DNA of 64,000 nt from Burkholderia sp. BCC0322 (GTDB lineage Bacteria; Pseudomonadota; Gammaproteobacteria; Burkholderiales; Burkholderiaceae): positions 124,001 to 188,000 of the forward strand of contig NZ_CADFDU010000003.1 of assembly GCF_902833045.1 (NCBI RefSeq), written 5' to 3'. A program made the position numbers and the translations under genes. Below, one piece after another: positions 8,207-25,226 of this stretch. The notes beneath the pieces were generated by a model. The model saw nothing but the letters and a program-made list of their open reading frames with translations, was not told the DNA's origin and searched no databases. The first letter of the stretch is position 1; every line of letters starts with the position of its first letter.

Positions 8207-8236
8207 AAGCGCCGATGCGTCGGCGCTTGTTTTTTT
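8207..8236 (+). terminator. Rho-independent terminator after fdoI
   Basis: A perfect 9-bp stem AAGCGCCGA/TCGGCGCTT around a TGCG loop, then G and seven T (8230-8236). It separates the structural operon from fdhE-selA-selB; the T-run lies immediately before the fdhE ribosome binding site, so expression of the downstream genes would depend on leak-through or another promoter. Confidence 0.9.
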
Positions 8237-12651: not shown

Positions 12652-12747
12652 GGAAGGCATTCGTATCCGGTGGTACGGCCAGGCTTCAAACCTGGTTGGG
12701 GGTGTCAGACACTCCCGGGTAGGTTCGACTCCTGCTGCCTTCCGCCA
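12652..12747 (+). tRNA. selC: tRNA-Sec (anticodon TCA)
   Basis: A 96-base tRNA with encoded CCA end and all the peculiar features of bacterial tRNA-Sec: an 8-bp acceptor stem (GGAAGGCA with TGCCTTCC), discriminator G, anticodon stem CCAGG/CCTGG around CTTCAAA (anticodon TCA at 12686-12688), a long variable arm (about 12696-12717) and the T-arm sequence AGGTTCGACTCCT. It lies 32 bases after selB. Its last 16 bases are repeated at 24801-24816, which marks it as the attachment site of the adjoining genomic island; the island restores the 3' end so the gene stays functional. Confidence 0.97.
12732..12747 (+). repeat. Left attachment repeat (attL) in selC
   Basis: CTGCTGCCTTCCGCCA, the last 16 bases of the tRNA-Sec gene including CCA. 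The identical sequence occurs at 24801-24816 in the same orientation; the bases on either side differ between the two copies. Confidence 0.85.
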
Positions 12748-12813
12748 AACGGGCCTTCCGGCCTGTTCCGATCTCTTCCGGTTGCGTCCTCTACATCGCT
12801 GATTTTAAAGCAT

Positions 12814-12900
12814 TTTGTGGGTGGCGACGTGCTTGCGGTTACCGTTGACGCCCCGCACAATTTCCTCACGAAGTATGGGTAGCGATGTGGGTTTGTGGGT
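12814..12900 (+). repeat. Short TTTGTGGGT repeats before the integrase remnant
   Basis: TTTGTGGGT occurs exactly at 12814-12822 and 12892-12900, with a related ATGGGTAGCGATG between them (about 12875-12887). They sit between the tRNA end and the integrase start, where arm-type integrase sites or the integrase promoter would be. Their role is inference. The rest of 12748-12912 holds nothing else I can name. Confidence 0.4.
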
Positions 12901-12912
12901 AGGGAGGGCGAC

Positions 12913-13205
12913 ATGGGTGGACGACAGTTGCATCGACTCAGCGCTCTGCGGGTCGCAAAAGAAGTGACGCCGGGTCATGACGCGGATGGGGCTGGTCTCG
13001 ACATGCAGATCGCTGACAGCGGTGCGCACTCATGGGTGTTCCGGTTCAAACTGAGCGGCGCATGCGGGAGATGGGACTTGGTCCGCTCTCGCGAGTTTCT
13101 CTGGGCGAGGCGCGGAAACTGGCCGCCGGATACCGCGATAGGGTTGGGCATCTGATCGATCCCATCCTCGCACGGCGTGCAGCAGCGAAGAAAACTGCTC
13201 GCGAA
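12913..13205 (+). pseudogene. Tyrosine integrase remnant (P4-type N-terminus), frameshifted and truncated
   Basis: Only the N-terminal DUF4102-type arm-binding domain survives. The first frame reads MGGRQLHRLSALRVAKEV, then DADGAGLDMQIADSG and WVFRFKLSG; near 13057-13061 one base is missing and the homology continues in another frame as RMREMGLGPLSRVSLGEARKLAAGYRD and IDPILARRAAAK. It then stops within about 100 codons where an intact integrase has about 400, so the core-binding and catalytic domains (R-H-R-Y) are absent. A good GGGAGGG ribosome binding site precedes the ATG. It lies next to selC as in tRNA-integrating islands, and must have been disabled after the insertion. Confidence 0.82.
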
Positions 13206-13217
13206 TTGCTGCACGCC
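13174..13217. repeat. Perfect 11-bp inverted repeat at the end of the phenazine operon
   Basis: GGCGTGCAGCA (13174-13184) and TGCTGCACGCC (13207-13217) form an 11-bp stem with a 22-base loop, just past the phzC stop codon. No T-run follows on either strand, so if it ends transcription it does so as a non-canonical hairpin. It also marks where integrase homology ends. Confidence 0.5.
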
Positions 13218-13223
13218 GCCCTG

Positions 13224-14633
13224 CTATGCATACGCCGCATGCCGCTTTGCGCCGATTTCGGCAACCGGCGTCGTACCCAACTTGCGCACAATCAGCATCG
13301 CGATCTCCAGCGACTGCTCATAGTTCAACCTCGGATCGACCGTCGACTTGTAAGCGCGGGCCAAATCGGCCTCAGTCAGATTGCGCGCGCCGCCCAGGCA
13401 TTCGGTTACGTCTTCTCCGGTCAGCTCCAGATGCACGCCGCCCAGATGCGTGCCGCAGGCGACATGAATATCGAAGGCAGACTCAAGCTCAGCGTGGATG
13501 TTCTCGAAGCGCCGTGTCTTCACGCCGCCCGGGGTCGTTTCGCCGTTGCCGTGCATCGGATCGCAGCACCACAAGACACGCCGGCCCTCGGCCTTGACGG
13601 CATGCAGATGTTTCGGCAACTCCGCTTCGATCTTCGCCGCGCCCATGCGCGTGATGAGCGTCAAGCGGCCGGCCTCGTTCGTGGCGTTCAGCGCGTCGAT
13701 CGTGCGCAGCAACTGGTCGGTGCTCACCCCTGGCCCGACTTTCAGGCCGATCGGGTTGCGGATTCCGGAGCAGTATTCGATATGCGCACCGTCCAACTGC
13801 GCGGTGCGCATACCGATCCACGGAAAATGCGTCGACAGGTTGAACCAGCCCCAATGCTGCGGCACTTGCCGCGCCATTGCCTCTTCGTAGTTCAACAGCA
13901 GGGCCTCGTGCGACGTGTAGAAATCGATTCTCGCGTCGCTGCCGGAGGGCTCGCCCGCTAGCGCCTCCATGAAGCGCAGCGATTCGCCGATCGAGCGCGT
14001 CATCTTGCGATACTCGTCATAAAGCGGTGAATGCGAGGCCCAGGCCAGATCCCAATGTTCGGGGTGGTGCAGATCGGCGAAACCGGCGTCGCTCAGCGCG
14101 CGCACGAAATTCATCGTCAGCGCAGATTTGGAATGCGCCTCGAGCAGGCGCTGCGGGTCGGGCTCGCGCGCCTCTTTCGTAAAAGCGCTGGCGTTGACAA
14201 TGTCGCCGCGGTAGCAAGGCAGCGTCACGCCGTCGCGCGTTTCGGTATCCGCCGAGCGCGGCTTGGCGTACTGGCCGGCAAAGCGGCCGACCCGAACTAC
14301 CGGCAGCATCAAGCCATGCATGAGCACCAGGCTCATCTGCATCAGCACTTTGAGCCGATTGGCGATGATCGGCGCCGTGCAATCGGCGAAGCTTTCCGCG
14401 CAGTCGCCACCCTGCAGCAAGAAGCATCGTCCCGCCGCAGCGTCTGCGAGCTTGCGTTTGAGCGTCAGCACTTCCCCTGCGGCGACGAGTGGCGGCAGTG
14501 CTTGCAGCTGTGTCAGGGCGCGATCGAGCGCCGCAGCATCGCGATAAGCCGGTTGTTGCAGCGCCGGCTTCGTCTTCCAGGACGCGGGCGTCCAATTCCC
14601 GGCAACACGTGCCGAAGAGAGATTGCCTTCCAC
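13224..14633 (-). CDS. phzC: PhzC, class II DAHP synthase of the phenazine operon
   Basis: A 469-residue class II (plant-type) 3-deoxy-D-arabino-heptulosonate-7-phosphate synthase. It condenses PEP and erythrose-4-phosphate and so boosts shikimate-pathway flow to chorismate. Family landmarks: CFLLQGGDCAESFAD, RVGRFAGQYAKPRS, GDIVNASAF, LNATNEAGRLTLITRMG and the DPMHGNGETT metal-site region, then CGTHLGGVHLELTGEDVTECLGG. The start is GTG at 14631-14633 behind a GGGAG site. It is the last gene of the operon, whereas in Pseudomonas phz operons phzC lies right after phzB. A general-metabolism DAHP synthase is the alternative, but the operon context argues for phenazine supply. Confidence 0.93.
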   Translation of the reverse strand: MEGNLSSARVAGNWTPASWKTKPALQQPAYRDAAALDRALTQLQALPPLVAAGEVLTLKRKLADAAAGRCFLLQGGDCAESFADCTAPIIANRLKVLMQMSLVLMHGLMLPVVRVGRFAGQYAKPRSADTETRDGVTLPCYRGDIVNASAFTKEAREPDPQRLLEAHSKSALTMNFVRALSDAGFADLHHPEHWDLAWASHSPLYDEYRKMTRSIGESLRFMEALAGEPSGSDARIDFYTSHEALLLNYEEAMARQVPQHWGWFNLSTHFPWIGMRTAQLDGAHIEYCSGIRNPIGLKVGPGVSTDQLLRTIDALNATNEAGRLTLITRMGAAKIEAELPKHLHAVKAEGRRVLWCCDPMHGNGETTPGGVKTRRFENIHAELESAFDIHVACGTHLGGVHLELTGEDVTECLGGARNLTEADLARAYKSTVDPRLNYEQSLEIAMLIVRKLGTTPVAEIGAKRHAAYA

Positions 14634-14711
14634 AGTTCCACTCCCGTACTGAAGTGCTTTCGATCGAACGGATGTCGCCTGGCACGCAGGCGACGCCCAC
14701 GCTCCGCACCG

Positions 14712-15755
14712 CTACAGCTTGACGAGCACCGTGCCCAGATAACGTCCGCTGGACGTGTCGCACAACGCGCTCGGCGCGTCATCGAGGCCGTCGATCACCG
14801 TATGCGGGAACACGATCTCGCCGGCGCGCAGCCACTGCGCGAAACGCTCGAACCATTCGCCCTTCGCCTCCGGATTGTCGTCGGCGCTGTAGCCCCGCAT
14901 CGTGATCCGCTTGAGGAGAAATTGAACGGTATCGATTTCGGCCGGCGCGGTCCGACCCGTTCCCACCGCGGCAAGCTGGCCCGACAGCGCGCCGAGGATC
15001 AGGAAGCGCGCCCCTTCGCGCGCGGCCGTGACGGCCGCCTGCAATTGCTCGCCGCCGACCGAATCGATCAGGACGTCGATGCCGCCCTGCGCCGCATCGA
15101 GCAATTGCTCCGCGAACGGCGTGCTGCTGCCACGCGTGACGGCAGCGTCATACCCAAGCTCGGAAACCAGGCGTCGTGCCTTGTCGCGCGAACTCGTGCT
15201 GCCGATCACGCGCCCAGCTCCCAGCCGCTGCGCGATCTGTCCGGCCATCGCGCCGATCGCGCCGGCCGCGCTCGTTACGAACACGGTGTCGCCCGAACGG
15301 ATCGGCACGCCGCGCGTCAGCGCCGCGTAGGCGGTCCAGCCGTGCCCCAGGTAGCCGAGATAGCCGGCGGGCTCCGGCAGCGCCTCGCCGACGCGCTGAC
15401 AGCCCCATGCGGGCACCACCGCGTAGTCGCGCCAGCCGTGGAAGTGCGTGACGATGTCGCCGGCCGACAAACCGCTGTCGGCCGGCGCTTTCACCACCTC
15501 GCCGAGCGCTTCGCCCATCAGCACGTCTCCCGCCGACAAACACGGAAACGGCACACCGGGCACGTCTTCCGCGCCTTCGCTGATCATCGCGCGCAAAGAA
15601 GCCGAGACCAGGAAATAGCGATTGCGTACCAGCACGTCTCGCGGGCCGGCCGCCGGCAAGACGGCGGTGACGATTTCGAAATCGTCCGGTGTCGGCAGGC
15701 CTTTGAGCCTCGCCTTCAAGCGCACCTCGCGCCGCATTGAAATCGACAGATTCAT
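14712..15755 (-). CDS. MDR-superfamily NADP-dependent reductase (CurA/PTGR-like)
   Basis: A 347-residue zinc-free medium-chain dehydrogenase/reductase, closest in pattern to the curcumin reductase/prostaglandin reductase group. It opens with MRREVRLKARLKGLPTPDDFEIV and has the Rossmann signature TSAAGAIGAMAGQIAQRLGAGRVIGSTSS; the tail YSADDNPEAKGEWFERFAQWLRAGEI also fits. No zinc-binding cysteines are seen. Its ATG overlaps the stop of the methyltransferase gene as ATGA, so it is translationally coupled to it. Substrate unknown; as part of the operon it may act on a phenazine intermediate or protect the producer by reducing a reactive product. That role is inference. Confidence 0.85.
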   Translation of the reverse strand: MNLSISMRREVRLKARLKGLPTPDDFEIVTAVLPAAGPRDVLVRNRYFLVSASLRAMISEGAEDVPGVPFPCLSAGDVLMGEALGEVVKAPADSGLSAGDIVTHFHGWRDYAVVPAWGCQRVGEALPEPAGYLGYLGHGWTAYAALTRGVPIRSGDTVFVTSAAGAIGAMAGQIAQRLGAGRVIGSTSSRDKARRLVSELGYDAAVTRGSSTPFAEQLLDAAQGGIDVLIDSVGGEQLQAAVTAAREGARFLILGALSGQLAAVGTGRTAPAEIDTVQFLLKRITMRGYSADDNPEAKGEWFERFAQWLRAGEIVFPHTVIDGLDDAPSALCDTSSGRYLGTVLVKL

Positions 15756-16591
15756 GATCCGCTCCCGCCGGGTGCAGTGCGCGTCGATGAGGCGAACCAG
15801 CCTGCCGGGATGCGCGCGACGCTGCGGCCGTAGGTAATCGCCGGATCGTCCGAGGCATGCACGGTCGCTGTCCAGCCATATCGGTCGAGCCAGTCGCGAA
15901 CGTCGTCGCGGGACGAGAGCCAACGAGCGCCCTGCGATTCGACGCGCGCACGGGCCTCCTTGCCCTCGTCGCTCATCATGCGCGTGGCGAGATGCTCGAG
16001 CATGAGCGCGCTACCCGGCGCCGACAGGTCGGCCACCTGACGGATCAGCGCATCGCAGTCCGCATCGCGCAGATACATCAGAAGCCCCTCGATGAGCCAG
16101 ATCGTGGGCTTGGCGGGATCGAAGCCGGCTACGCGCAACGGGCTCGCCCAATCCGACGTCAGATCGGCGACGAACGGCCGCCAATCGCACTGCAGCGGCA
16201 ACTCGGACTGCTTCATGAGCTCGCGCTTGAAGGCGATGATGTCGTCGAGATCGAGCTCGAACCAGCGCGTGCCGAACGGACAGGCCAGACGCGCCACGCG
16301 GCCGTCCATGCCGGCGGCCAGCGTGACGACCTGCCGTATCCCGCGGCTCAGGTTCGCGAGAATGGCATCGTCGAAGTAGCGTGTGCGGACAACGAAATAT
16401 TGCGGAAAGTTCGCGCGCCGCGCGACTTCGGTGACGTGCGCATGCGTCGGCGTGCCGGCCAGGTGCTCGATCAGCGCGGCGGCAAACGGATCGTGAAACA
16501 AGGCATCCGGACGCTGGCTTTCGGCGTGACGTTGCCAGGCAATGAACAGTGCGGTTTGGCCGACGCCAACCGGAATATCGAGAGTAGACAC
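15752..16591 (-). CDS. Class I SAM methyltransferase, leucine-carboxyl-methyltransferase (LCMT) family
   Basis: A 279-residue methyltransferase of the LCMT/Ppm1-TIGR00027 type. Motif I-like VVTLAAGMDGRVARL, the preceding RTRYFDDAIL and the WFELDLDDIIAFKRE segment are typical, as is IWLIEGLLMYL. The start is GTG at 16589-16591, preceded by AAGGA; no suitable ATG exists nearby. Members often methylate carboxyl groups, so within this operon the best guess is methyl-ester formation on phenazine carboxylates (made by PhzA-G). It overlaps the reductase gene by 4 bases. Family assignment is firm; the substrate is inference. Confidence 0.85.
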   Translation of the reverse strand: MSTLDIPVGVGQTALFIAWQRHAESQRPDALFHDPFAAALIEHLAGTPTHAHVTEVARRANFPQYFVVRTRYFDDAILANLSRGIRQVVTLAAGMDGRVARLACPFGTRWFELDLDDIIAFKRELMKQSELPLQCDWRPFVADLTSDWASPLRVAGFDPAKPTIWLIEGLLMYLRDADCDALIRQVADLSAPGSALMLEHLATRMMSDEGKEARARVESQGARWLSSRDDVRDWLDRYGWTATVHASDDPAITYGRSVARIPAGWFASSTRTAPGGSGS

Positions 16592-16617
16592 AGGCAGGTT
16601 CCTTATCCGCAAAAGAA

Positions 16618-17256
16618 TCAAGGTTGGAGTTGCGTGGTTTTCCAAACGTCGCCATCGCGTTCGTACCTGAGGCGCCGGTGAAGCCGGTCGGAGCTGGCGG
16701 CCCAGAATTCCATCTCGTGAGGCTCGAGCCGATAGCCAACGAAGCGCGGCGGCCGCGGCAACGCGACGCCGAGCGCAAGCAGCTCGGCGGCGTGCGCGAG
16801 CAGCGCTTCGCGGTCGACGAGCTCGTCGCTCTGGTGCGAGGCGCTCGACATCGCGTGCATCGGCACCGAGCGCCCGAACCAGAGCTTGTCGTTCTCGCTT
16901 TCTTCGAGCGGAACCGCCTGGCCGGAAATCATGATCTGCTGCCCGGTTTCGCGCCAATACAGCAGGCCCGAGGCCCAGCCTGTCTCCGAGAGTTCGCGTC
17001 CTTTGCGGCTCGTCGAATGCGTGCAGAAGATCACGCCGCGGTCGTCGATCGAGGAGAACGCGATGATGCGCGAAGACATGCGTCCGTCGGACTTGGCGGT
17101 TGCGAGCGCGAGCGCCTTGGGCTCGCGGACGCGGGCGACATCGGCCGCCGCGAGCCAGCGTTTGAGCAGCGTGATCGGCTCGGACGGCGGGTCGTCATAT
17201 TCGGGGAACAGGACGTCGACGCGTCCCGTGAGGCTTTCGAATCGACTGGTGTTCAT
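16618..17256 (-). CDS. phzG: PhzG, FMN-dependent oxidase of phenazine biosynthesis
   Basis: A 212-residue protein of the pyridoxamine-5'-phosphate-oxidase fold. In phenazine synthesis PhzG uses FMN to oxidise the tricyclic hexahydro-phenazine intermediates towards phenazine-1,6-dicarboxylate and phenazine-1-carboxylate. Conserved stretches: DPPSEPITLLKRWLAAA, ALATAKSDGRMSSRIIAF, FCTHSTSRKGRELSETGWASGLLYWRETGQQI, and the C-terminal EFWAASSDRLHRRLRYERDGDVWKTTQLQP. Length matches the family. It lies 37 bases after phzF and 26 before the methyltransferase gene in the operon. Confidence 0.95.
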   Translation of the reverse strand: MNTSRFESLTGRVDVLFPEYDDPPSEPITLLKRWLAAADVARVREPKALALATAKSDGRMSSRIIAFSSIDDRGVIFCTHSTSRKGRELSETGWASGLLYWRETGQQIMISGQAVPLEESENDKLWFGRSVPMHAMSSASHQSDELVDREALLAHAAELLALGVALPRPPRFVGYRLEPHEMEFWAASSDRLHRRLRYERDGDVWKTTQLQP

Positions 17257-17293
17257 GGCATTGTTTTCGTAAAGGCAAAAGACGGGTGCGGCG

Positions 17294-18502
17294 CTAGACG
17301 CCCAGGCGGCCGCGTGCGACGACGACACCGTGACCGCTGACCTTGACCGCCTCGATGCCGTGCTCCGAGCCGTCCACCAGCGCATGCATGTGCGAGGGAC
17401 GCTTGATCTCGACGCCTTGGAGAATGTGCAGCGGCTCGCCCCACGGAATCAGTCCGTAGCGGGCAAGGTGAATGGCGATGGGGCCGGCGGCGGAGCCCGT
17501 CGCCGCATCCTCCACGACACCGTAGGCCGGCGAGAACATCCGGCAGCGCCAGTGGTCGCCCGCGGGGGCCAGGCACATGGCCGACATATCCTCGAACTCA
17601 GCCAACGCGCGATGGTCCGGATGCACGTCGGAAAGCGCGGAGGCGTCGGGCAACGTGACGAACACGTGGCGCGGGCCGTTTCGATAGGCATCCACGGGCA
17701 GCGCGGACGCTTCTACGCCGAGCGCGTCGAGCAGACGCTCGGCCCGATCAAAGCGCGCCCACGTCGGGATCGGCTGCTGCATGGTGACGTAAGCCTCGCC
17801 GGGCGCATCGGAGCGCACATCGAACGGCACGAGCCCCATGCCCGTCTCGAACACGAAGCGATCCTGCGCCTTGACGTGCCTGAGCGCCACGGCCGTTCCC
17901 AGCAACGGATGGCCCGCAAACGGCAGCTCGTTGACCGGCGTGAAGATGCGCACGCGCACGTCGCCGCCCTGCATCGGCGGCATCACGAACACCACTTCCG
18001 ACAGATTCATTTCGCGGGCGATCCGCTGCATGCGCTCCGCCGGCAGCGGATCGTCGATCAGGAAGACGGCAACCGGATTACCTTCGAGCGGCGTGCGCGT
18101 GAAGGCGTCAACGACGATGTAGTCGATGGGATGCGAGGCATGGACCGGCGGCGCCGCGTGCGTATTCGCGTGCGATGCTGCCGGTTCGAGCGCGCGCATG
18201 CGCGCCGCGATTTCACCGCTCGCGGCGCTTGCCTTCACCGAGAAGCGCAGCCGCTCGGCAACCGGCAGGCCGATCAGCGTCTGCGCATCGTTCGGCGGCA
18301 GCAGATGTGCGGGCGGACGCTCGCCATCCCAGAGCATGATTGCGCCCCAGCGATTCTTGTCCTCGTCGGCAATCCAATGCTTCTCGCGCATGCCCGGCAC
18401 GTTCGACCAGCGCGCGAGGGTGCTGTCGTCCACACGCGCCCTCAGCGATTCGATGCTTTGCTCGGAACCGTCGAGGTTCCACCAAACGATGTCGACAATC
18501 AT
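17294..18502 (-). CDS. phzF: PhzF with an extra N-terminal YdhR/ABM-like domain
   Basis: A 402-residue protein; ordinary PhzF is about 280. Residues from about 125 on are a full PhzF, the isomerase that converts trans-2,3-dihydro-3-hydroxyanthranilate (DHHA) to the reactive aminoketone that self-condenses. The catalytic motifs are present: VDAFTRTPLEGNPVAVF (Glu45 equivalent), ELPFAGHPLLGTAVAL (His74 equivalent) and VVEDAATGSAAGPIAIHL (Asp208 equivalent). Residues 1 to about 92 form a separate domain (MIVDIVWWNLDGSEQ, then PGMREKHWIADEDKNRWGAIML) that looks like the YdhR/antibiotic-monooxygenase dimeric alpha/beta barrel, joined by an Ala/His-rich linker of about 30 residues. The N-terminal domain's role is unknown. 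Reading frame is continuous with one start at 18500-18502. Confidence 0.92.
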   Translation of the reverse strand: MIVDIVWWNLDGSEQSIESLRARVDDSTLARWSNVPGMREKHWIADEDKNRWGAIMLWDGERPPAHLLPPNDAQTLIGLPVAERLRFSVKASAASGEIAARMRALEPAASHANTHAAPPVHASHPIDYIVVDAFTRTPLEGNPVAVFLIDDPLPAERMQRIAREMNLSEVVFVMPPMQGGDVRVRIFTPVNELPFAGHPLLGTAVALRHVKAQDRFVFETGMGLVPFDVRSDAPGEAYVTMQQPIPTWARFDRAERLLDALGVEASALPVDAYRNGPRHVFVTLPDASALSDVHPDHRALAEFEDMSAMCLAPAGDHWRCRMFSPAYGVVEDAATGSAAGPIAIHLARYGLIPWGEPLHILQGVEIKRPSHMHALVDGSEHGIEAVKVSGHGVVVARGRLGV

Positions 18503-18546
18503 GAAACGCGTGTCCTATAGGGTTCTATAAAAAGCATGAAGAGCCG

Positions 18547-20478
18547 TCAGGCCGTCAACGCGGTCGCGCGTTTTTCGCGGCGTATCGCGTGTGTGATGGC
18601 TTCGCCGAGAATGCGCGGCCCGTCGACGGTCAAGACCGATTCGGCGTGGAATTGCATCGAGCTGAACGTTGGACCGCGCAAGGCATGCACCTCGCCCGTG
18701 CGCGGATCGCGGCTGATGGCCAGCGCGCCGACGCCGTCGATTTCCATTTCGTCCCTGACGGTCCGCGCGACATACGTGTTGTAAAAGCCCACGCGCTCAC
18801 GCCGGCCGAACAGATCGATCTCGACTTGGATGCCCTGATTGGGCACCTCGCGCCGCACGAGCGGAATGCCGAGGATGGCGTTCAGGACCTGATGGCTCAG
18901 GCAGACGGCCATGAACGGCTTGCCCTCGTCGATGAGATGCCGCAGCCACGCATAGAGGCGAGCGATGCGCGGATCGCCGGCGTCGCTCGGGTCTCCCGGG
19001 CCCGGCCCCATGACGACCACGTCGTAACGCGCAAGGTCCACCGCGTCGTGAACGCCGCGCACTTCCGTGGCGAGGCCGAGCGACGACAGTTGTTGGGCGA
19101 TCATCGCCGTGAAGTGATCTTCGGCGTCGATGATGAGCGCGCGGCGGCCGCTTAACTCAGCCGACTCATCGGCCATCTCGCCTTGTCGCGCGCCATATGG
19201 CCGAAACCAGAAGTCCGCGATGCCTTTGTTGCGCTCGCGCAGCGCCGCCTGCACCGATGGATGCTGTCCGAGCATCGGGCCGGCTTCCGGCGGATCGAAT
19301 GCGTTCGACAGCGCGGCCACCTTGGCATGTGTCTCCATGACTTCCGATGCCGCGTCCGAATGCCGGACGAGCGTCGAGCCGACACCGATGCGAACGTGTC
19401 CGGCGCGGTCGATCTCCGCGGTGCGGATCAGGATGGCGGAGTCGAGCGTGCGCTCGCCGCGCGCATCGCGGCCGATCAGCGCTGCAATGCCGCTGTAGTA
19501 GCCGCGGCCGGCCTGCTCGTGCCGCGCGATCACGCGGGTCGCGCTTTCGATCGGACTGCCGGTGACCGTCGGCGCAAACATCGTTTCGCGCAGCAAATCG
19601 CGGACATCGGCTTCGGTGTGCCCGACGATGAAATATTCGGTGTGGGCGAGCCGCGCCATCTCGCGCAAGTGCGGCCCCGTGACCTGCCCGCCGCCCGGGC
19701 AGATGCGCGCCATCATCTTGAGTTCTTCGTCGAGCACCATGTACAGCTCGTCGGATTCCTTGCGATCGCCGAGAAAAGCGTTGATCCCGTCGATCGTCGG
19801 CCCGCTCTGCGGATATCGATAAGTCCCGCTGATCGGGTTCATCGTCGCGCGGCCTTCATGCAGCGTCAGGTGGCGCTCTGGCGTGGCGCCGACGAACGTG
19901 CGCTCCCCGGCATGAATCACGAAGATCCAATACGCGCCGACTTCCCGGCGCATCAGACGCTTGAAGACCGCCAGCGCCTTGGCGGGCGAATAGTCGTCGA
20001 GATCGCCCTCGAGCGTGCGCTTGATGACGAAGTTCGAGCCCGCGCCGGTGCCGATCTCGTCGGTGATGACGCGCTCGACGATCTGGGCGTAGGTTTCGTC
20101 GTCGATATCGAAGTGACGCTCGCCGAGCGCGGTATCGGCATCGGGAATGGCAGCGAGCGCAAGCGGCACGGACACCGTTTCGTGCTCGTCACAGGTCATG
20201 GCGATGAGTGGGGCGCCGTCGTCGTGTGTTTTGAAGCCGCGCTCGTGCAGCTGCCGGTATGGCACGAGCACAAGCAGCTCCTGACGGTCCGCACCCGCCT
20301 TTGTCGGCGCGGCCAACGGAAGCTCGGCCAGGGAGGACGGATAGGAAACCGCGCCGGCGAAGACGTCGATAGTCGCGCGCTCCCCAGCGCTACCCGTCGA
20401 ACGCGCGATCAATGCGAAGCACGGCGCTTGTCCATTCAGGACGCGATCGAAAAGGTTGTGGTTCGGAGCGGCGTTCAT
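18547..20478 (-). CDS. phzE: PhzE, 2-amino-2-deoxyisochorismate synthase
   Basis: A 643-residue fusion of an anthranilate-synthase component I-like (chorismate-binding) domain with a C-terminal glutamine amidotransferase domain. It makes ADIC from chorismate and glutamine, the first committed step. The first part has [33 protein letters not shown] and [13 protein letters not shown]; the GATase part has the nucleophile Cys in [16 protein letters not shown] and the catalytic His-x-Glu in [16 protein letters not shown]. The ATG overlaps the phzD stop by 4 bases (ATGA), so PhzD and PhzE are co-translated. Size agrees with Pseudomonas PhzE. Confidence 0.96.
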
Positions 20479-21098
20479 GCCAGCGCCTCCTCGGTGCTCA
20501 CCACCTTGCCGCAGCGCTGGGCTACGTATTCCAGGGCCTGGTGATGATGGTCTTCGGAAAAGTCCGCCACGCCATCGGCGACGAAGAACGGCTGAATGTC
20601 GTTCGTGAACGCATCGACGGCCGACATCATTACGCCGATGTGCGCGTAGACGCCACACAGCATCAGCTGATCGCGACCGCTCTCCTGCATGCGCTCGCGC
20701 AGCCCGGTGCGGAAAAATGCGCTGTAGCGCCACTTCGTGAGCATCCAGTCCTCTGGGGACGGGCCGACTGCCTCGGCGACGTCCCGATCGGCCGGCTTCG
20801 TCTCCATGCCCGGCCCCCAGAAATCGCGCAACAAACCGCGTTCCTTCTCGGTCATGCGCCCGGGATGGGCCGTGTACGCGACGGGAATGCCGGCCTGCTT
20901 GCACCGTTTGCGCAGCGACGCGACGTTGGTCGTCAACGTCTCACGCAGCGTCGGCGGCAACGGAGAAAGGAAATAGTTCTGCATGTCATGAATGAGCAGC
21001 AACGCGCGCGATGGATCGACACGCCATGACACGACGTTCTCGGGCAGGCTGCTCGAATCGGGCAGCACGTACGGTTGAATCGAAGGAATACCAGCCAT
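20475..21098 (-). CDS. phzD: PhzD, isochorismatase (ADIC hydrolase)
   Basis: A 207-residue isochorismatase-fold enzyme that hydrolyses ADIC to DHHA plus pyruvate. The length is identical to Pseudomonas PhzD. The catalytic Asp38 lies in [11 protein letters not shown] and Lys122 in [13 protein letters not shown]; the loop [18 protein letters not shown] and [22 protein letters not shown] are family signatures. The start ATG at 21096-21098 has an excellent GGAGGAG ribosome binding site. It lies 23 bases after phzA/B and overlaps phzE by 4 bases. Confidence 0.97.
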
Positions 21099-21121
21099 TC
21101 GTCTCCTCCATTGGGTATGCG

Positions 21122-21619
21122 TTAGCTCGGTAGACCATCCCGGCGCACTTCGGGAACTTCGATACCCAAGGAACGGAATTGCTCGCAAGGGTTCATGAAT
21201 TCGCGCTGCTCCTTGATCAGTCCGTTTTCGAAGCGGAACGAGTGAAGGAAGTGATTGCGGTAATGGCCTTGGGGGTAGCCGGGGAAAATGATCGCGCCTT
21301 CGCCGCGGCACTCGACCCAGAACCAGTTCGGGTCTTGCGTCTCGAAGATATGGATGTCGGTCCAGACCCAGTCGGGGAAGCATTGCAGCGACCACACGGC
21401 GTGCTCGCTGAGCTTCTCGCGGCCGCGAATCACGATCGGCTGGCCGCTGTCGGTAGTCCACAGTCCGCCGACGCCATCTTCCGTGAACAGTAGATGGCGC
21501 TTGAGCCGCGCTTCGCCACGCGTGTGCATGTACTGCTCGACGATCTTGCGGTTGTGCTGCCGGACCGCGACGTGCGAGTGAGTTTCCGACTGGTTTTCGA
21601 GGGATTCGATGTCTGACAT
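21122..21619 (-). CDS. phzB: PhzA/B, phenazine ring-condensation enzyme (SnoaL-like)
   Basis: A 165-residue NTF2/SnoaL-fold protein that binds two aminoketone molecules made by PhzF and catalyses their condensation to the phenazine tricycle. The residues known to matter in the Burkholderia enzyme are present: Arg41, His73, Ser77 and Glu140. The sequence (for example [20 protein letters not shown] and [18 protein letters not shown]) is nearly that of the structurally studied Burkholderia PhzA/B as I remember it. There is one copy only, while Pseudomonas has the pair phzA and phzB. It has an AGGAG site and lies between the monooxygenase gene and phzD. Confidence 0.96.
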
Positions 21620-21676
21620 GCAAGCTCCTGAAGTAAAAGGGGGCCGCCCCGCGGGGAGCAGGGAAGCCGCGCGGGA

Positions 21677-22960
21677 TTACACGAGGTAGCTGATTTCGCG
21701 CGGATCGAGGCCGACGAGCGCGCGGCCGTAGACGAGTTGCGGAATGCCCATCCCGAAGCCCGCGTGGCGGCTCGCCACGTTCAGATCGCGCCAGATCAAC
21801 TGCAGCGGATTGGATTCCATGAAGGCGGCGCTGCCGTAGGCTGTCATGAGGCGATCGATGGCCTCGCGGCACAGGCGCGTGACGCGCGTCGATTCCATCC
21901 GAAAGCGCGAACGCGTCACTTCGTCGGGCAGGACGCCGGCCAGTGCATGGTGTTCGACCGTTTCGACGATGCGGCGGGCGTGCAGCCGCGCGCCGTCGAT
22001 CATCATCGACGCTTCGGCGAGATCGGTCTGGAACGCGGGCGAAACAGCCTGGCTCTTGAACGTGGACGAGGCGACGCGGCGCTCGTGAGCCTGCTCGCGC
22101 ACGAGTTGCAGCGCGGTTACGATCGCCCCGAGCTGCGGTCCGAGCAGACCGATCGACAGCAAGCCCGAGAACGCGCCGCTATATAGACGGTGCCGTTCCG
22201 ACGGCAGGCGGGACCGGCCCTGCACGATCGGCGCGTAAGGCGTCACGCGATGGCGCGGAATGAACAGCCGGTTCGCCACGACGGTGTTGCTGCCGGTGCC
22301 GCGCATGCCCGTGATATGCCAGGAGTCTCGGACTTCGAGCTCGCTCATCGGCATGAGGACCAGGTTGATCGTCTCGTCGTCGGCATCGATGCCTTTCGGG
22401 ATCAGCGCGCCGATCCATTCGGCGTGCAGGCTGCCGGATGCGTAAGCCCACTCTCCCGTCACCACGACACCGCCGTCGACGCGTTCGACCTGGGCGCGCG
22501 AAGGCGCAATGATGAGCGCGGTGCGCGTGTCGCGGTTGCCGCCCCACACGTCGTCCTGCGTGCTCTCGGGGAAGTGGGCGATCATGTAGTTGCCCATGTT
22601 GAGCACGCTCGTGACCCACGACGCCGAGCAGCAGCCGCGCCCCAGCTCGTAGCAGACGTCGAACAGCGTGGCGGGACCCGCTTCGTAGCCGCCGAGCCGG
22701 CGCGGCGTGAAGAGCCGCATCAGCCCAGCCTCGGTAATAGCGGCGACGGCGCGGTCGGTCAGGCGGCGCTCGGTGTCGGCAGCGCGCGATTCTTCCGCGA
22801 GCACGCCGGCGACTTCTGCCGCCTTCGCGACCAATTGCTCATGCTCGGCCACCGATTCGTCGAGCGCAATGGCGTCATGTCCGGCCGAATTTCCTTCCTG
22901 CAATGTGCGTTCATTTGTCATTTCACGAGTCATCCGCTGGGAGGTCAGTATCGTGCTCAC
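21677..22960 (-). CDS. Acyl-CoA-dehydrogenase-fold flavoprotein, probable phenazine hydroxylase
   Basis: A 427-residue protein of the acyl-CoA dehydrogenase fold, closest in pattern to flavin-dependent group D monooxygenases (HpaB/HsaA-type): an N-terminal helical domain ([34 protein letters not shown]), a central beta domain ([48 protein letters not shown]) and a C-terminal helical domain with [20 protein letters not shown]. It is the first gene of the operon. The start is GTG at 22958-22960 with a GGAG site; ATGs 9 and 13 codons later are possible but have no ribosome binding site. A partner flavin reductase is not in the window. Hydroxylation of the phenazine core is inference from fold and context. 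Confidence 0.83.
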
Positions 22961-23544
22961 GGCATCTCCGCAATAAATTTATAATCTTTATTGTTGAAAA
23001 ATATAAAACAATAAGGGGTGCGAAAATTTAAATGTCAATTAACCTGGAAATCGAAGCAAATAAGATCCGGCACTTTTAGTGGGTGCGCGTGTTATTGGAA
23101 AATGCCGTGCGCCAGTAGCCATGAGGCCCGTATCCAGATTTTTATGACTAGTCAAAAATACGCATTTCTTTCATAAAATATAAATATTCCTTACAGTTTC
23201 TCTAATGTGAACAGGGGTGTCGATTTTTTGCAAACCACGCCGCCTCGTCGATTTCCAGTTAAAAGCCTGGGTGATTGAGTGGCGCGGTACCTATGGGCGC
23301 AACGGGATATAACCCCCACCCATTATTTTTTTCATTCCTATGCGCACACTATATGGCGCGGTTAACTGTAGGATGAACTTGGTAAATTTCCACCTGTTAA
23401 ATTTGACGGGTGGTGTCCAGCTCAGCTGAATGAGGCAGTGAATGAAATAGATTTTGAGATTATTTAAAAATGACTTCGCGGTATGTCTGAAGCAGCTCCA
23501 GCTGTATTGTCAGGTTATTCGGTAGACAGACGAAAGAGGGCAGC
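22961..23544. other. AT-rich divergent intergenic region of the phenazine operon
   Basis: About 580 bases without a credible gene, between the phenazine operon and the divergent gene at 23597. It is far more AT-rich than anything else in the window. Towards the operon there is a TTGACA on the minus strand (TGTCAA at 23033-23038 on plus) but no good -10 at 16-18 bases. A 10-bp palindrome lies at 23145-23154. A GAGGGCAGC ribosome binding site precedes an ATG at 23545. I found no clear lux-box palindrome. The operon's promoter and regulator sites must be here. Confidence 0.6.
23145..23154. promoter_or_regulatory. Palindrome TGACTAGTCA, possible operator
   Basis: A perfect 10-bp palindrome with partly symmetric flanks (TTTTA on the left, AAAAA on the right), giving a roughly 18-bp dyad in the AT-rich region upstream of the phenazine operon. 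The size and flanks resemble MarR/TetR-type operators. No regulator gene lies beside it, so its function is inference. Confidence 0.35.
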
Positions 23545-23596
23545 ATGAGCACGCAGCCTTGCCGAAATTCCGCCCGGCCTCACCGTCGGACAAGCG

Positions 23597-24544
23597 TTGA
23601 TCGACGCGCTCTTCAAGCCGATCGTGGAAAAGCTCACGCAGTTCGTCCAGACATGCCTTGACAACTGGGCCGAGCTGGATCTCGGCGAAGATATCGACGC
23701 TGCCGGCGATGCCATTGCCGATGGCGCATCGGATGCAGCGGATGCCGTCGGGGAAGAAGCGGCGGAAATTGCCGTCGACGAGGTCGCGGCGGCAGCCTTC
23801 ATCGATCTGGCGGCCGTCGCGCCGCCGCTTGCAGTGCTCGGCGCGCTCGTAGCGATTCCGTTCATCGTCGGCGCGCTGGAGAAAAAGTTCATTCTTCATT
23901 TCGAGGCCGACAACTTCACCGACTACGACCTCGAATGGAAGATCGAATACATGGACGAAGGGACGATGACGTCCCAGCCCCAAAGCGACACGGTGCCGAA
24001 GCTCGGCTACGCCACCGACATCCGGGGCGATCAGACGACGGTTCAGGTTGCATACCAGGCGAATGACTCGTCCATGAACACGAGCGGCTTCAGCGGCATC
24101 GGCCTCCTGCTGCATCTGACGCTCAAGGGGGCTCCCGCCGGTTCCGATGTTGCCGCAGTGATCTCGATCCCGTGGATCGCAGACAACGTTGTCTGGCTGG
24201 GCGACGTGCCGGGCAATCCGAACTGGGGCGCGATCTACGATCGGGCCAGCGGCGCATCGAGCCAGTTGGCTGTCGAACACGGCAACCTCAAGTTCTTCAT
24301 CCGGCTTGCCAGCGGCCGGATCTACATCGAGGCGAAGAACAGCGGAAGTTGCTTCTTCGAGTCCTCGCGATTCAAGCTGAAAGTGACCGACAACTCGAAC
24401 GGCGCGATCATCGGCACGGTTTCGTTCGTCGATTCGAGCGCGAACTGGACGGTGGCGAGCAACACCAATCCGGATGTCCTCAACGTGAACATCGACAATT
24501 CGGGCAGTCAAGCCACTATCACCGTGACCGTGGCCGCATCCTGA
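23597..24544 (+). CDS. Unrecognised island protein with a damaged or unusual start
   Basis: I do not recognise this protein. From TTG at 23597 it is 315 residues. The N-terminal third is helical and Ala/Asp-rich (DIDAAGDAIADGASDAADAVG), followed by one strong hydrophobic stretch (AAVAPPLAVLGALVAIPFIVGAL) and then a beta-rich domain of about 200 residues (FILHFEADNFTDYDLEWKIEY ... VLNVNIDNSGSQATITVTV). No signal peptide. Homology-like sequence begins earlier: an ATG at 23545 with a GAGGGCAGC site reads MSTQP, and dropping one C near 23554 would join it to SLAEIPPGLTVGQA in the frame of the gene. So either a 1-base insertion disabled the natural start, or translation begins at TTG. It diverges from the phenazine operon inside the island. 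A pore-forming or effector role is conceivable but not shown. Confidence 0.6.
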   Translation: MIDALFKPIVEKLTQFVQTCLDNWAELDLGEDIDAAGDAIADGASDAADAVGEEAAEIAVDEVAAAAFIDLAAVAPPLAVLGALVAIPFIVGALEKKFILHFEADNFTDYDLEWKIEYMDEGTMTSQPQSDTVPKLGYATDIRGDQTTVQVAYQANDSSMNTSGFSGIGLLLHLTLKGAPAGSDVAAVISIPWIADNVVWLGDVPGNPNWGAIYDRASGASSQLAVEHGNLKFFIRLASGRIYIEAKNSGSCFFESSRFKLKVTDNSNGAIIGTVSFVDSSANWTVASNTNPDVLNVNIDNSGSQATITVTVAAS

Positions 24545-24549
24545 GCCGG

Positions 24550-24586
24550 ACGGCAACGGGTGCGCCGGCCAGGCGCCCGTTGCCGT
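24550..24586 (+). terminator. Strong hairpin after the unrecognised island gene
   Basis: A perfect 11-bp stem ACGGCAACGGG/CCCGTTGCCGT with a 15-base loop starting 6 bases past the stop codon. Only a short pyrimidine tract and no T-run follows, so it is terminator-like rather than canonical. Confidence 0.55.
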
Positions 24587-25013
24587 CGCCTTCGCCGTGC
24601 GTACGGCAAACAACGATCCTTGTCAGCGGAATCCTTATTGCCCGAATCGGTGCTGAAATATGCTCGGAGACCCTTTGCCGACAATGCCTCGGTCGGTATT
24701 TGATTGCCGATGGAGCATTGATGGGCAGGATCGTGGGCAGGAAGCCATCTGTGATCGAGGGAGTCTTACCTGGCGGACCAGTGCGAGCGGTGGTTGGCGT
24801 CTGCTGCCTTCCGCCACCCCGTCTTTTTTCGACCCGCCACGCTTCAATCGACGCGTAATTGCGGGACTGTGCCGACGATCGCGCTCGACAAAACTTGATC
24901 GGGAAAATTACCAAAGGTATGCGAATTATTTCCCGGCTATAGTGGAACGACTGAAGGTAGATGCGGCGTCTTCTGCCGATACCGTTCAGGTAACGACTGT
25001 AGACCGGTGCCGT
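24587..25013. other. Island right end and junction with the backbone
   Basis: 427 bases without a gene. It contains the right attachment repeat (24801-24816). After the repeat comes CCCCGTCTTTTTTCG: a U-run that would have followed selC before the insertion. Near 24940-24946 a TATAGT element may be a -10 for the small gene at 25014, but no good -35 is seen. Confidence 0.55.
24801..24816 (+). repeat. Right attachment repeat (attR) of the selC island
   Basis: Exact copy of the last 16 bases of selC (CTGCTGCCTTCCGCCA), same orientation, 12,069 bases from the first copy. Upstream sequence does not resemble the rest of the tRNA, so it is a partial duplication made by integration and not a second tRNA gene. 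Confidence 0.85.
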
Positions 25014-25226
25014 ATGAAAAAGAAAATCGAAAAGACCGCCCGACCGATCTGGGGCGTGGCTGCAGGATTGCTTCTTGCCGTCGCGGGATTGAGTCTCGGC
25101 ATTTTCCCGAAGTCCCTGCAAAGCTCGGGAAGCGCGAACGAGTTCATGGCGTCCGGTGTTGCGATGCTGGGCATCTTCCTGGTCGTCTATTCCACGCACG
25201 AGTTGCGAAGAAGGCGCTCGCACTGA
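25014..25226 (+). CDS. Small two-helix membrane protein of unknown function
   Basis: A 70-residue protein: a Lys-rich start (MKKKIEKTARP), a first hydrophobic helix (IWGVAAGLLLAVAGLSLGIF), a short loop (PKSLQSSGSANEF), a second helix (MASGVAMLGIFLVVYS) and a basic tail (HELRRRRSH). The positive-inside pattern predicts both ends in the cytoplasm. I recognise no family. It is the first gene of the chromosomal backbone to the right of the island. The ribosome binding site is weak, and a longer in-frame reading upstream lacks coding character. Confidence 0.6.
   Translation: MKKKIEKTARPIWGVAAGLLLAVAGLSLGIFPKSLQSSGSANEFMASGVAMLGIFLVVYSTHELRRRRSH

What the first reader, a model, noticed from the sequence alone, without database searches (positions are those of the whole stretch)
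12732..24816. A phenazine genomic island sits in the tRNA-Sec gene
The last 16 bases of selC are repeated exactly 12 kb downstream (12732-12747, 24801-24816), with a broken P4-type integrase beside the tRNA and the whole phenazine operon inside. selC is a known landing site for islands, but here the cargo is an antibiotic-type operon, and the host gene is part of the window's own selenoprotein system. It explains how phenazine production could move between related strains.
Basis: partly seen in the sequence, partly recalled or inferred. Interest (0 to 1): 0.8.

Follow-up and report, generated by a model that had tools for sequence, protein, structure and literature searches.

The report
Phenazine genes in selC genomic island
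A Burkholderia chromosome carries its antibiotic-type phenazine genes inside an old, now disabled genomic island at the selenocysteine tRNA gene, and the same phenazine block sits at different places in related species, so the block seems to travel separately from the island.

Summary
The last 16 bases of selC (12732-12747) recur exactly at 24801-24816. Relatives show the empty site: B. arboris (L031), G028 and G030 join selC to the right flank with one copy of the 16-mer; G037 and G079 are equally empty. Only the N-terminal quarter of a P4-type integrase remains, in two frames. The right end (24657-24816) resembles ends found in 17 of 65 genus genomes, so this is one member of an island family with varied cargo.

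The phenazine block (13202 to about 23502) is a separate module. Blocks 93-97% identical lie in G079, G067 and G017, none beside selC; G079 keeps selC empty. Of 5 phz-positive species among 65, four certainly lack phz in the selC island and the fifth (G067, 82 kb downstream) very probably does. In the window the block interrupts the integrase, and 55 bases of an IS6-type end border it, as in G079. Fourfold sites and trees show that phz moved between species (G067: phz 89%, fdhE-selA-selB 67%). The repeats explain the island, not the spread of phenazine. How the module entered is unresolved. New member of a known kind.

The parts
12652..12747 (+). selC (tRNA-Sec), intact, CCA encoded
   Evidence: ARAGORN
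12732..12747 (+). attL copy of the 16-base repeat (3' end of selC)
   Evidence: single copy at empty sites
12876..12902 (+). TGGGTAG at 12876 and 12896; TGGGCAG stands twice at the right end (24722, 24734); possible integrase arm sites (inferred, motif not rare in the window)
12895..13201 (+). remnant of a P4-type integrase: about the first 100 of 423 residues, in two frames, cut at 13201
13224..14633 (-). phzC (class II DAHP synthase); the phz module begins at 13202 just past its stop
   Evidence: Pfam; edge in G079, G067, G017
14712..15755 (-). ADH-type oxidoreductase (curcumin-reductase-like, below the NCBIfam cut-off)
15752..16957 (-). SAM-dependent methyltransferase (LCM / TIGR00027); true start probably inside the ORF
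16618..17385 (-). phzG
17294..18502 (-). phzF
18547..20904 (-). phzE
20475..21872 (-). phzD (domain in the 3' part of the ORF)
21122..21619 (-). phzA/B homologue
   Evidence: Pfam PF03284
21677..22960 (-). flavin monooxygenase-like (HsaA-like, below the NCBIfam cut-off; acyl-CoA-dehydrogenase fold)
23392..23411 (.). 20-base near-palindrome ACCTGTTAAATTTGACGGGT, kept in G079, G067, G017, not found in G007 or Trinickia; looks like a lux-type box (recalled)
23503..23557 (.). remnant of the end of an IS6-type insertion sequence (IS240-type transposase in G067; family name recalled)
23597..24544 (+). orphan ORF (315 aa), first possible start a TTG, no relative found
24657..24816 (+). conserved right end of the island family, ending in the attR repeat
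24801..24816 (+). attR copy of the 16-base repeat
25014..25226 (+). first gene of the right flank
   Evidence: flank joined directly to selC at empty sites

Best explanation
[quoted passage not shown] inferred: the recombination itself). A separate phenazine module of about 10.3 kb, which occurs at other chromosomal places in other species, came to lie inside it; its left edge now cuts the integrase after roughly a quarter of its length, so the island should no longer excise on its own (shown: truncation; inferred: loss of excision). The module carries phzC, an oxidoreductase, a methyltransferase, phzG, F, E, D, B and a monooxygenase, and probably makes a methylated, hydroxylated phenazine dicarboxylate such as that reported from B. 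cepacia 5.5B (inferred from domains). An IS6-type insertion sequence, whole or as a remnant, borders the module in G067, G079 and the window and may have helped it move (inferred). Spread between strains today would need homologous recombination through the flanks or an integrase supplied by another element (inferred).
For: Exact repeats. Empty sites in L031 B. arboris and G028, G030, G037, G079. Right end found in 17 of 65 genomes, 12 of these 17 aligned with the window, running straight across attR into the same flank in G019 and G036. Integrase remnant against an intact 423-aa relative beside selC in G025. phz module at 97/93/94% in G079, G067, G017 away from selC with the same left edge at 13202/13206, and G079 selC empty. 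Fourfold sites: G079 sel 768/893 against phz 1730/1806; G067 481/720 against 1543/1733. Trees conflict: phz joins G017+G067 (100), sel joins G067+G007 (100). IS6-type end at the right edge in the window and G079 and a longer copy at the left edge in G067.
Against: G017, the closest by selA-selB, has equal divergence at phz and sel genes (821/914 and 1582/1762, both 89.8%), which fits simple inheritance for that pair if the module was relocated later. No IS lies at the window's left edge, and the module breaks slightly inside its limits in G079 and G067 on both sides, so IS transposition left no clean scar. G067 has phz about 82 kb downstream of selC; a very long selC island there is not formally excluded. 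For most of the 17 right-end matches the link to selC on one contig was not shown; G016 and G083 depart from the repeat within its 16 bases. The window's own genome and strains of its species are not held, so polymorphism within the species is untested. G028 and B. arboris are almost identical at selA-selB, so their two empty sites count as about one.
Confidence: 0.84

Rival explanations
1. The phz operon travelled into this lineage as original cargo of the selC island through its own integrase, and the integrase was truncated afterwards by deletion.
For: phz lies between the two att repeats with both island ends in place; other selC sites hold inserts of varied size.
Against: In the 5 other phz-positive species phz is not beside selC (G067, at 82 kb, not formally excluded); the module has the same left edge at unrelated loci; its 97% relative G079 has an empty selC.
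Confidence: 0.22
2. The phz cluster is ancestral in the Burkholderia cepacia group, was lost from most species and relocated within genomes; no recent transfer is needed.
For: G017 and the window show the same divergence at phz and sel genes.
Against: G067 is 66.8% at sel fourfold sites but 89.0% at phz, and G079 86.0% against 95.8%; the trees conflict with full support; 59 of 65 species have no PhzA/B match at E<=0.001 and 60 have none over the cut-off.
Confidence: 0.06
3. The second 16-mer is a chance copy and the boundaries are unrelated to selC.
For: None beyond its shortness.
Against: Expected 0.00014 copies; empty sites break at both copies; the sequence leading into the right copy is conserved in the 12 other genomes aligned.
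Confidence: 0.01

Closest known systems
P4-type integrase genomic islands at selC (E. coli selC islands; retronphage phiR73)
   Same: Integration at the selenocysteine tRNA gene, P4-type integrase, hot spot with varied cargo.
   Different: Here on a Burkholderia replicon, with a truncated integrase and biosynthetic cargo. The E. coli cases are recalled, plus passages and reference titles in PMC7266877.
Burkholderia thailandensis phage PhiE067
   Same: Integrates in the 3' end of selC on chromosome 2, with a 19 bp att site (passages read, PMC7266877).
   Different: A complete myovirus; the relation of its integrase to the one here was not tested.
ICEPm2 of Proteus mirabilis BL95
   Same: A mobile element at a tRNA 3' end that carries a phenazine operon (passages read, PMC11278526).
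   Different: tRNA-Phe, 52 bp repeats, 87.9 kb, with conjugation genes; none were seen here among the ORFs scanned.
phz cluster of Burkholderia lata / B. [quoted passage not shown]
   Same: Probably the same kind of operon: core phz plus methyltransferase and oxygenase genes (inferred; the compound is named in passages of PMC9958762).
   Different: The functional paper (Hendry 2021, 10.1128/AEM.02348-20) is not held, so whether it already describes this location is unknown to me.

Membership tests
tRNA-anchored P4-type integrase genomic island | direct repeat of the tRNA 3' end at both limits | tested here: met
   exact 16-mer at 12732 and 24801
tRNA-anchored P4-type integrase genomic island | empty site in relatives | tested here: met
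   L031, G028, G030 with one exact copy; G037, G079 contiguous but without an exact copy (changed tRNA end)
tRNA-anchored P4-type integrase genomic island | P4-type integrase gene beside the tRNA | tested here: met
   as a remnant only: Arm domain pieces (under the cut-off) and 85% and 92% match to residues 1-92 of an intact relative
tRNA-anchored P4-type integrase genomic island | complete integrase | tested here: not met
   homology ends at 13201, no catalytic part; no other match to it in the window
tRNA-anchored P4-type integrase genomic island | distinct base composition | tested here: inconclusive
   GC 65.2% against 66.3 and 68.5%
Integrative and conjugative element | relaxase and conjugation genes inside | tested here: not met
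   10 ORFs of the island scanned against Pfam and phzB gave phz and modifying genes only; two of the 10 (integrase piece, orphan ORF) had no match; shorter ORFs were not scanned
Phenazine biosynthesis operon | phzA/B, C, D, E, F, G | tested here: met
Composite IS6-type transposon | two IS copies flanking the block | tested here: not met
   only a ~55-base IS end on the right edge in the window
Methylated dihydroxyphenazine dicarboxylate producer | product made by the strain | not testable with these tools
   needs chemistry

The most novel reading that the evidence does not exclude
selC in Burkholderia (chromosome 2, inferred) hosts a family of non-autonomous islands that keep both att ends but lose their integrase to incoming cargo or decay, and are moved, if at all, by integrases of intact relatives; biosynthetic modules bordered by insertion sequences drop into these shells, giving a two-layer route for antibiotic genes.
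Probability: 0.25. Interest if true: 0.55.

Novelty: new member of a known kind. Interest (0 to 1): 0.38.

Why it matters
It shows selC as a busy island site in Burkholderia (4 of 32 measurable genomes empty, the rest holding 0.9 to 184 kb) and separates two things easily confused: the vehicle that made the repeats, and the antibiotic-gene module now inside it, which moves between species by other means.

Tried and rejected
The pattern was a generic tRNA end and irrelevant; it was replaced. GC as evidence of foreignness: too small a difference. The orphan ORF 23597-24544: no Pfam, NCBIfam or PDB match, none in 65 genus genomes as protein, in plasmids or viral contigs; no control for these empty answers was run. 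A single-sequence fold was poor (mean pLDDT 47.1) and was not used. A chance-repeat explanation was rejected. Vertical inheritance of phz was rejected for G067 and G079 but not for G017. TGGG[CT]AG as arm site stays a guess: it occurs 10 times in the window on both strands, 4 of them at the island's two ends. I first took the IS end at 23538, then moved it to about 23503 after comparing other copies. In some searches the gene at 8235 is labelled selD; it is fdhE, and the pooled 'sel' numbers are fdhE+selA+selB. One search left out alignments under 65% protein identity before pooling (by: three G084 phz rows and the Trinickia methyltransferase). Its phz tree used 7 of the 9 genes (not the methyltransferase and monooxygenase) and 6 sequences; its sel tree used selA and selB and 10 sequences. 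The occupancy count uses 32 of 65 genomes: selC and the right flank on one contig, the flank match starting within 80 bases of the island's end and lying downstream of selC; G022 met this only by a wrap round the record start and was left out; the largest gaps may include rearrangements.

Full report
The observation. ARAGORN finds one tRNA in the window, tRNA-Sec at 12652-12747. Its last 16 bases recur exactly at 24801-24816; 0.00014 copies are expected by chance in the 64 kb on both strands. fdhE, selA and selB lie upstream, so the tRNA belongs to a selenocysteine locus.

The empty site. Window sequence up to 12747 and from 24801 on joins in B. arboris NZ_CP101525 (L031), where 12747 corresponds to 8148 and 24801 to 8133, an overlap of exactly 16 bases. 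G028, G030, G037 and G079 are joined likewise. The exact 16-mer occurs once in L031 and in the stretches of G028 and G030; those of G037 and G079 have no exact copy. G028 and B. arboris are nearly identical at selA-selB, so they are not independent. In 32 of 65 genus genomes the distance from selC to the right flank could be measured: 4 are empty (7 to 9 bases), the others hold 0.9 to 184 kb.

The island's own parts. At the left, 12895-13059 and 13059-13169 match residues 1-55 and 56-92 of a 423-residue integrase that stands intact beside selC in G025, 85% and 92% identical; DNA homology ends at 13201. That relative has the Arm, central and catalytic domains. Homologues with open frames lie by selC in G025, G033, G029, G026 and G085, and partial or broken ones in G001, G013, G062 and G077. 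At the right, the stretch before 24801 has matches in 17 of 65 genomes. I aligned 12 of these 17 with the window: 10 of the 12 end in a recognisable tRNA end, G025 and G033 with the exact 16-mer, while G016 and G083 depart within it. In G019 and G036 the alignment runs on into the same flank; for most others the link to selC on one contig was not shown. TGGGTAG stands twice at the left end and TGGGCAG twice at the right end; that these are integrase arm sites is inference. So the window holds one member of a selC island family.

The cargo. Between 13202 and about 23502 lies a phenazine operon on the minus strand: monooxygenase, phzB, D, E, F, G, methyltransferase, oxidoreductase and phzC. The same block occurs in G079 (97%), G067 (93%) and G017 (94%), starting at 13202 or 13206, just past the phzC stop, at places other than beside selC. 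In the genus 5 of 65 genomes match PhzA/B over the cut-off. G079 is empty at selC; in G017 and G084 the inserts between selC and the flank are 4.5 and 5.7 kb and phz lies elsewhere; in G007 phz is on the other side of selC; in G067 it is about 82 kb downstream among other genes, so a very long island there is unlikely but not formally excluded. In G079 phz lies beside a collagenase gene that 14 other genomes hold at 88% identity or more; genes to its right match no other genome of the 65 (one stretch tested).

Transfer. At fourfold sites the window and G067 agree at 481 of 720 (66.8%) in fdhE, selA and selB but at 1543 of 1733 (89.0%) in phz genes; for G079 768 of 893 and 1730 of 1806; for G017 821 of 914 and 1582 of 1762, no difference; for G007 543 of 739 and 868 of 1453, phz being the more diverged. 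The phz tree joins G017 with G067 (support 100) and the window with G079 (99); the selA-selB tree joins G067 with G007 (100) and the window with G017 (77). phz has moved between species, the pair window-G017 being the exception that fits inheritance.

Edges of the module. Upstream of the operon lies an AT-rich leader with a 20-base near-palindrome at 23392-23411, kept in G079, G067 and G017 but not found by the same pattern in G007 or Trinickia; its likeness to a lux-type box is recalled. The leader ends at the terminus of an IS6-type insertion sequence (family name recalled): about 55 bases in the window, 183 recognisable bases at the same edge in G079, and a longer copy at the opposite edge in G067, whose transposase matches DDE_Tnp_IS240; five other copies end within 5 bases of the same point. 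G067 also has an IS4/5-type transposase there (DUF4096); IS-like remnants that I thought I saw beside phz in G079 (left) and G017 were not confirmed as transposases by Pfam. The window's left edge has no insertion sequence that I could see. Insertion sequences may have helped, but the actual join to the integrase gene is not explained.

Between this edge and the island's right end is one orphan ORF, 23597-24544, whose first possible start is a TTG and for which no relative was found.

Literature. PMC7266877 (passages) reports a B. thailandensis phage in the 3' end of selC with a 19 bp site. PMC11278526 (passages) reports a phenazine operon on an ICE at tRNA-Phe. PMC9958762 (passages) says phenazine clusters were found in 20 Burkholderia strains, citing Hendry 2021, which is not held. 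Searches (25 of 95 papers listed, all hits listed, none) showed no paper on phenazine genes at selC by title or opening of the abstract; only the passages named were read, so this is weak evidence of absence.

Verdict. A real selC island with a truncated integrase; a phenazine module as later or independent cargo. New member of a known kind.

Noticed in passing
L066 17475-17570 and 18493-18588 (G017): Two complete tRNA-Sec genes about 1 kb apart, the second followed by DNA like the start of the same integrase gene.
   Followed up: partly
L064 (G036, selC downstream) and L097: Left and right ends as in the window but about 19 kb of other cargo, with LysR-like, aldehyde-dehydrogenase-like and transporter-like frames by eye (not scanned).
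   Followed up: partly
L069 17781-18696 (G014): A 0.9 kb insert between two exact 16-mers in a phz-negative genome, perhaps a nearly emptied island.
   Followed up: no
L104 / L103 (G025): A right-end copy with the 16-mer about 108 kb from selC and about 21 kb before the flank, suggesting two islands in tandem.
   Followed up: no
window 23597-24544: Orphan ORF with no relative in any library or collection tried; helical start and strand-rich remainder in a poor model.
   Followed up: partly
window 23392-23411: Conserved near-palindrome upstream of the phz operon, possibly a quorum-sensing box.
   Followed up: partly
L038 (Trinickia fusca): Closest PhzB (83%) among the 12 named loci returned, from which Burkholderia records near the window may have been left out.
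   Followed up: partly
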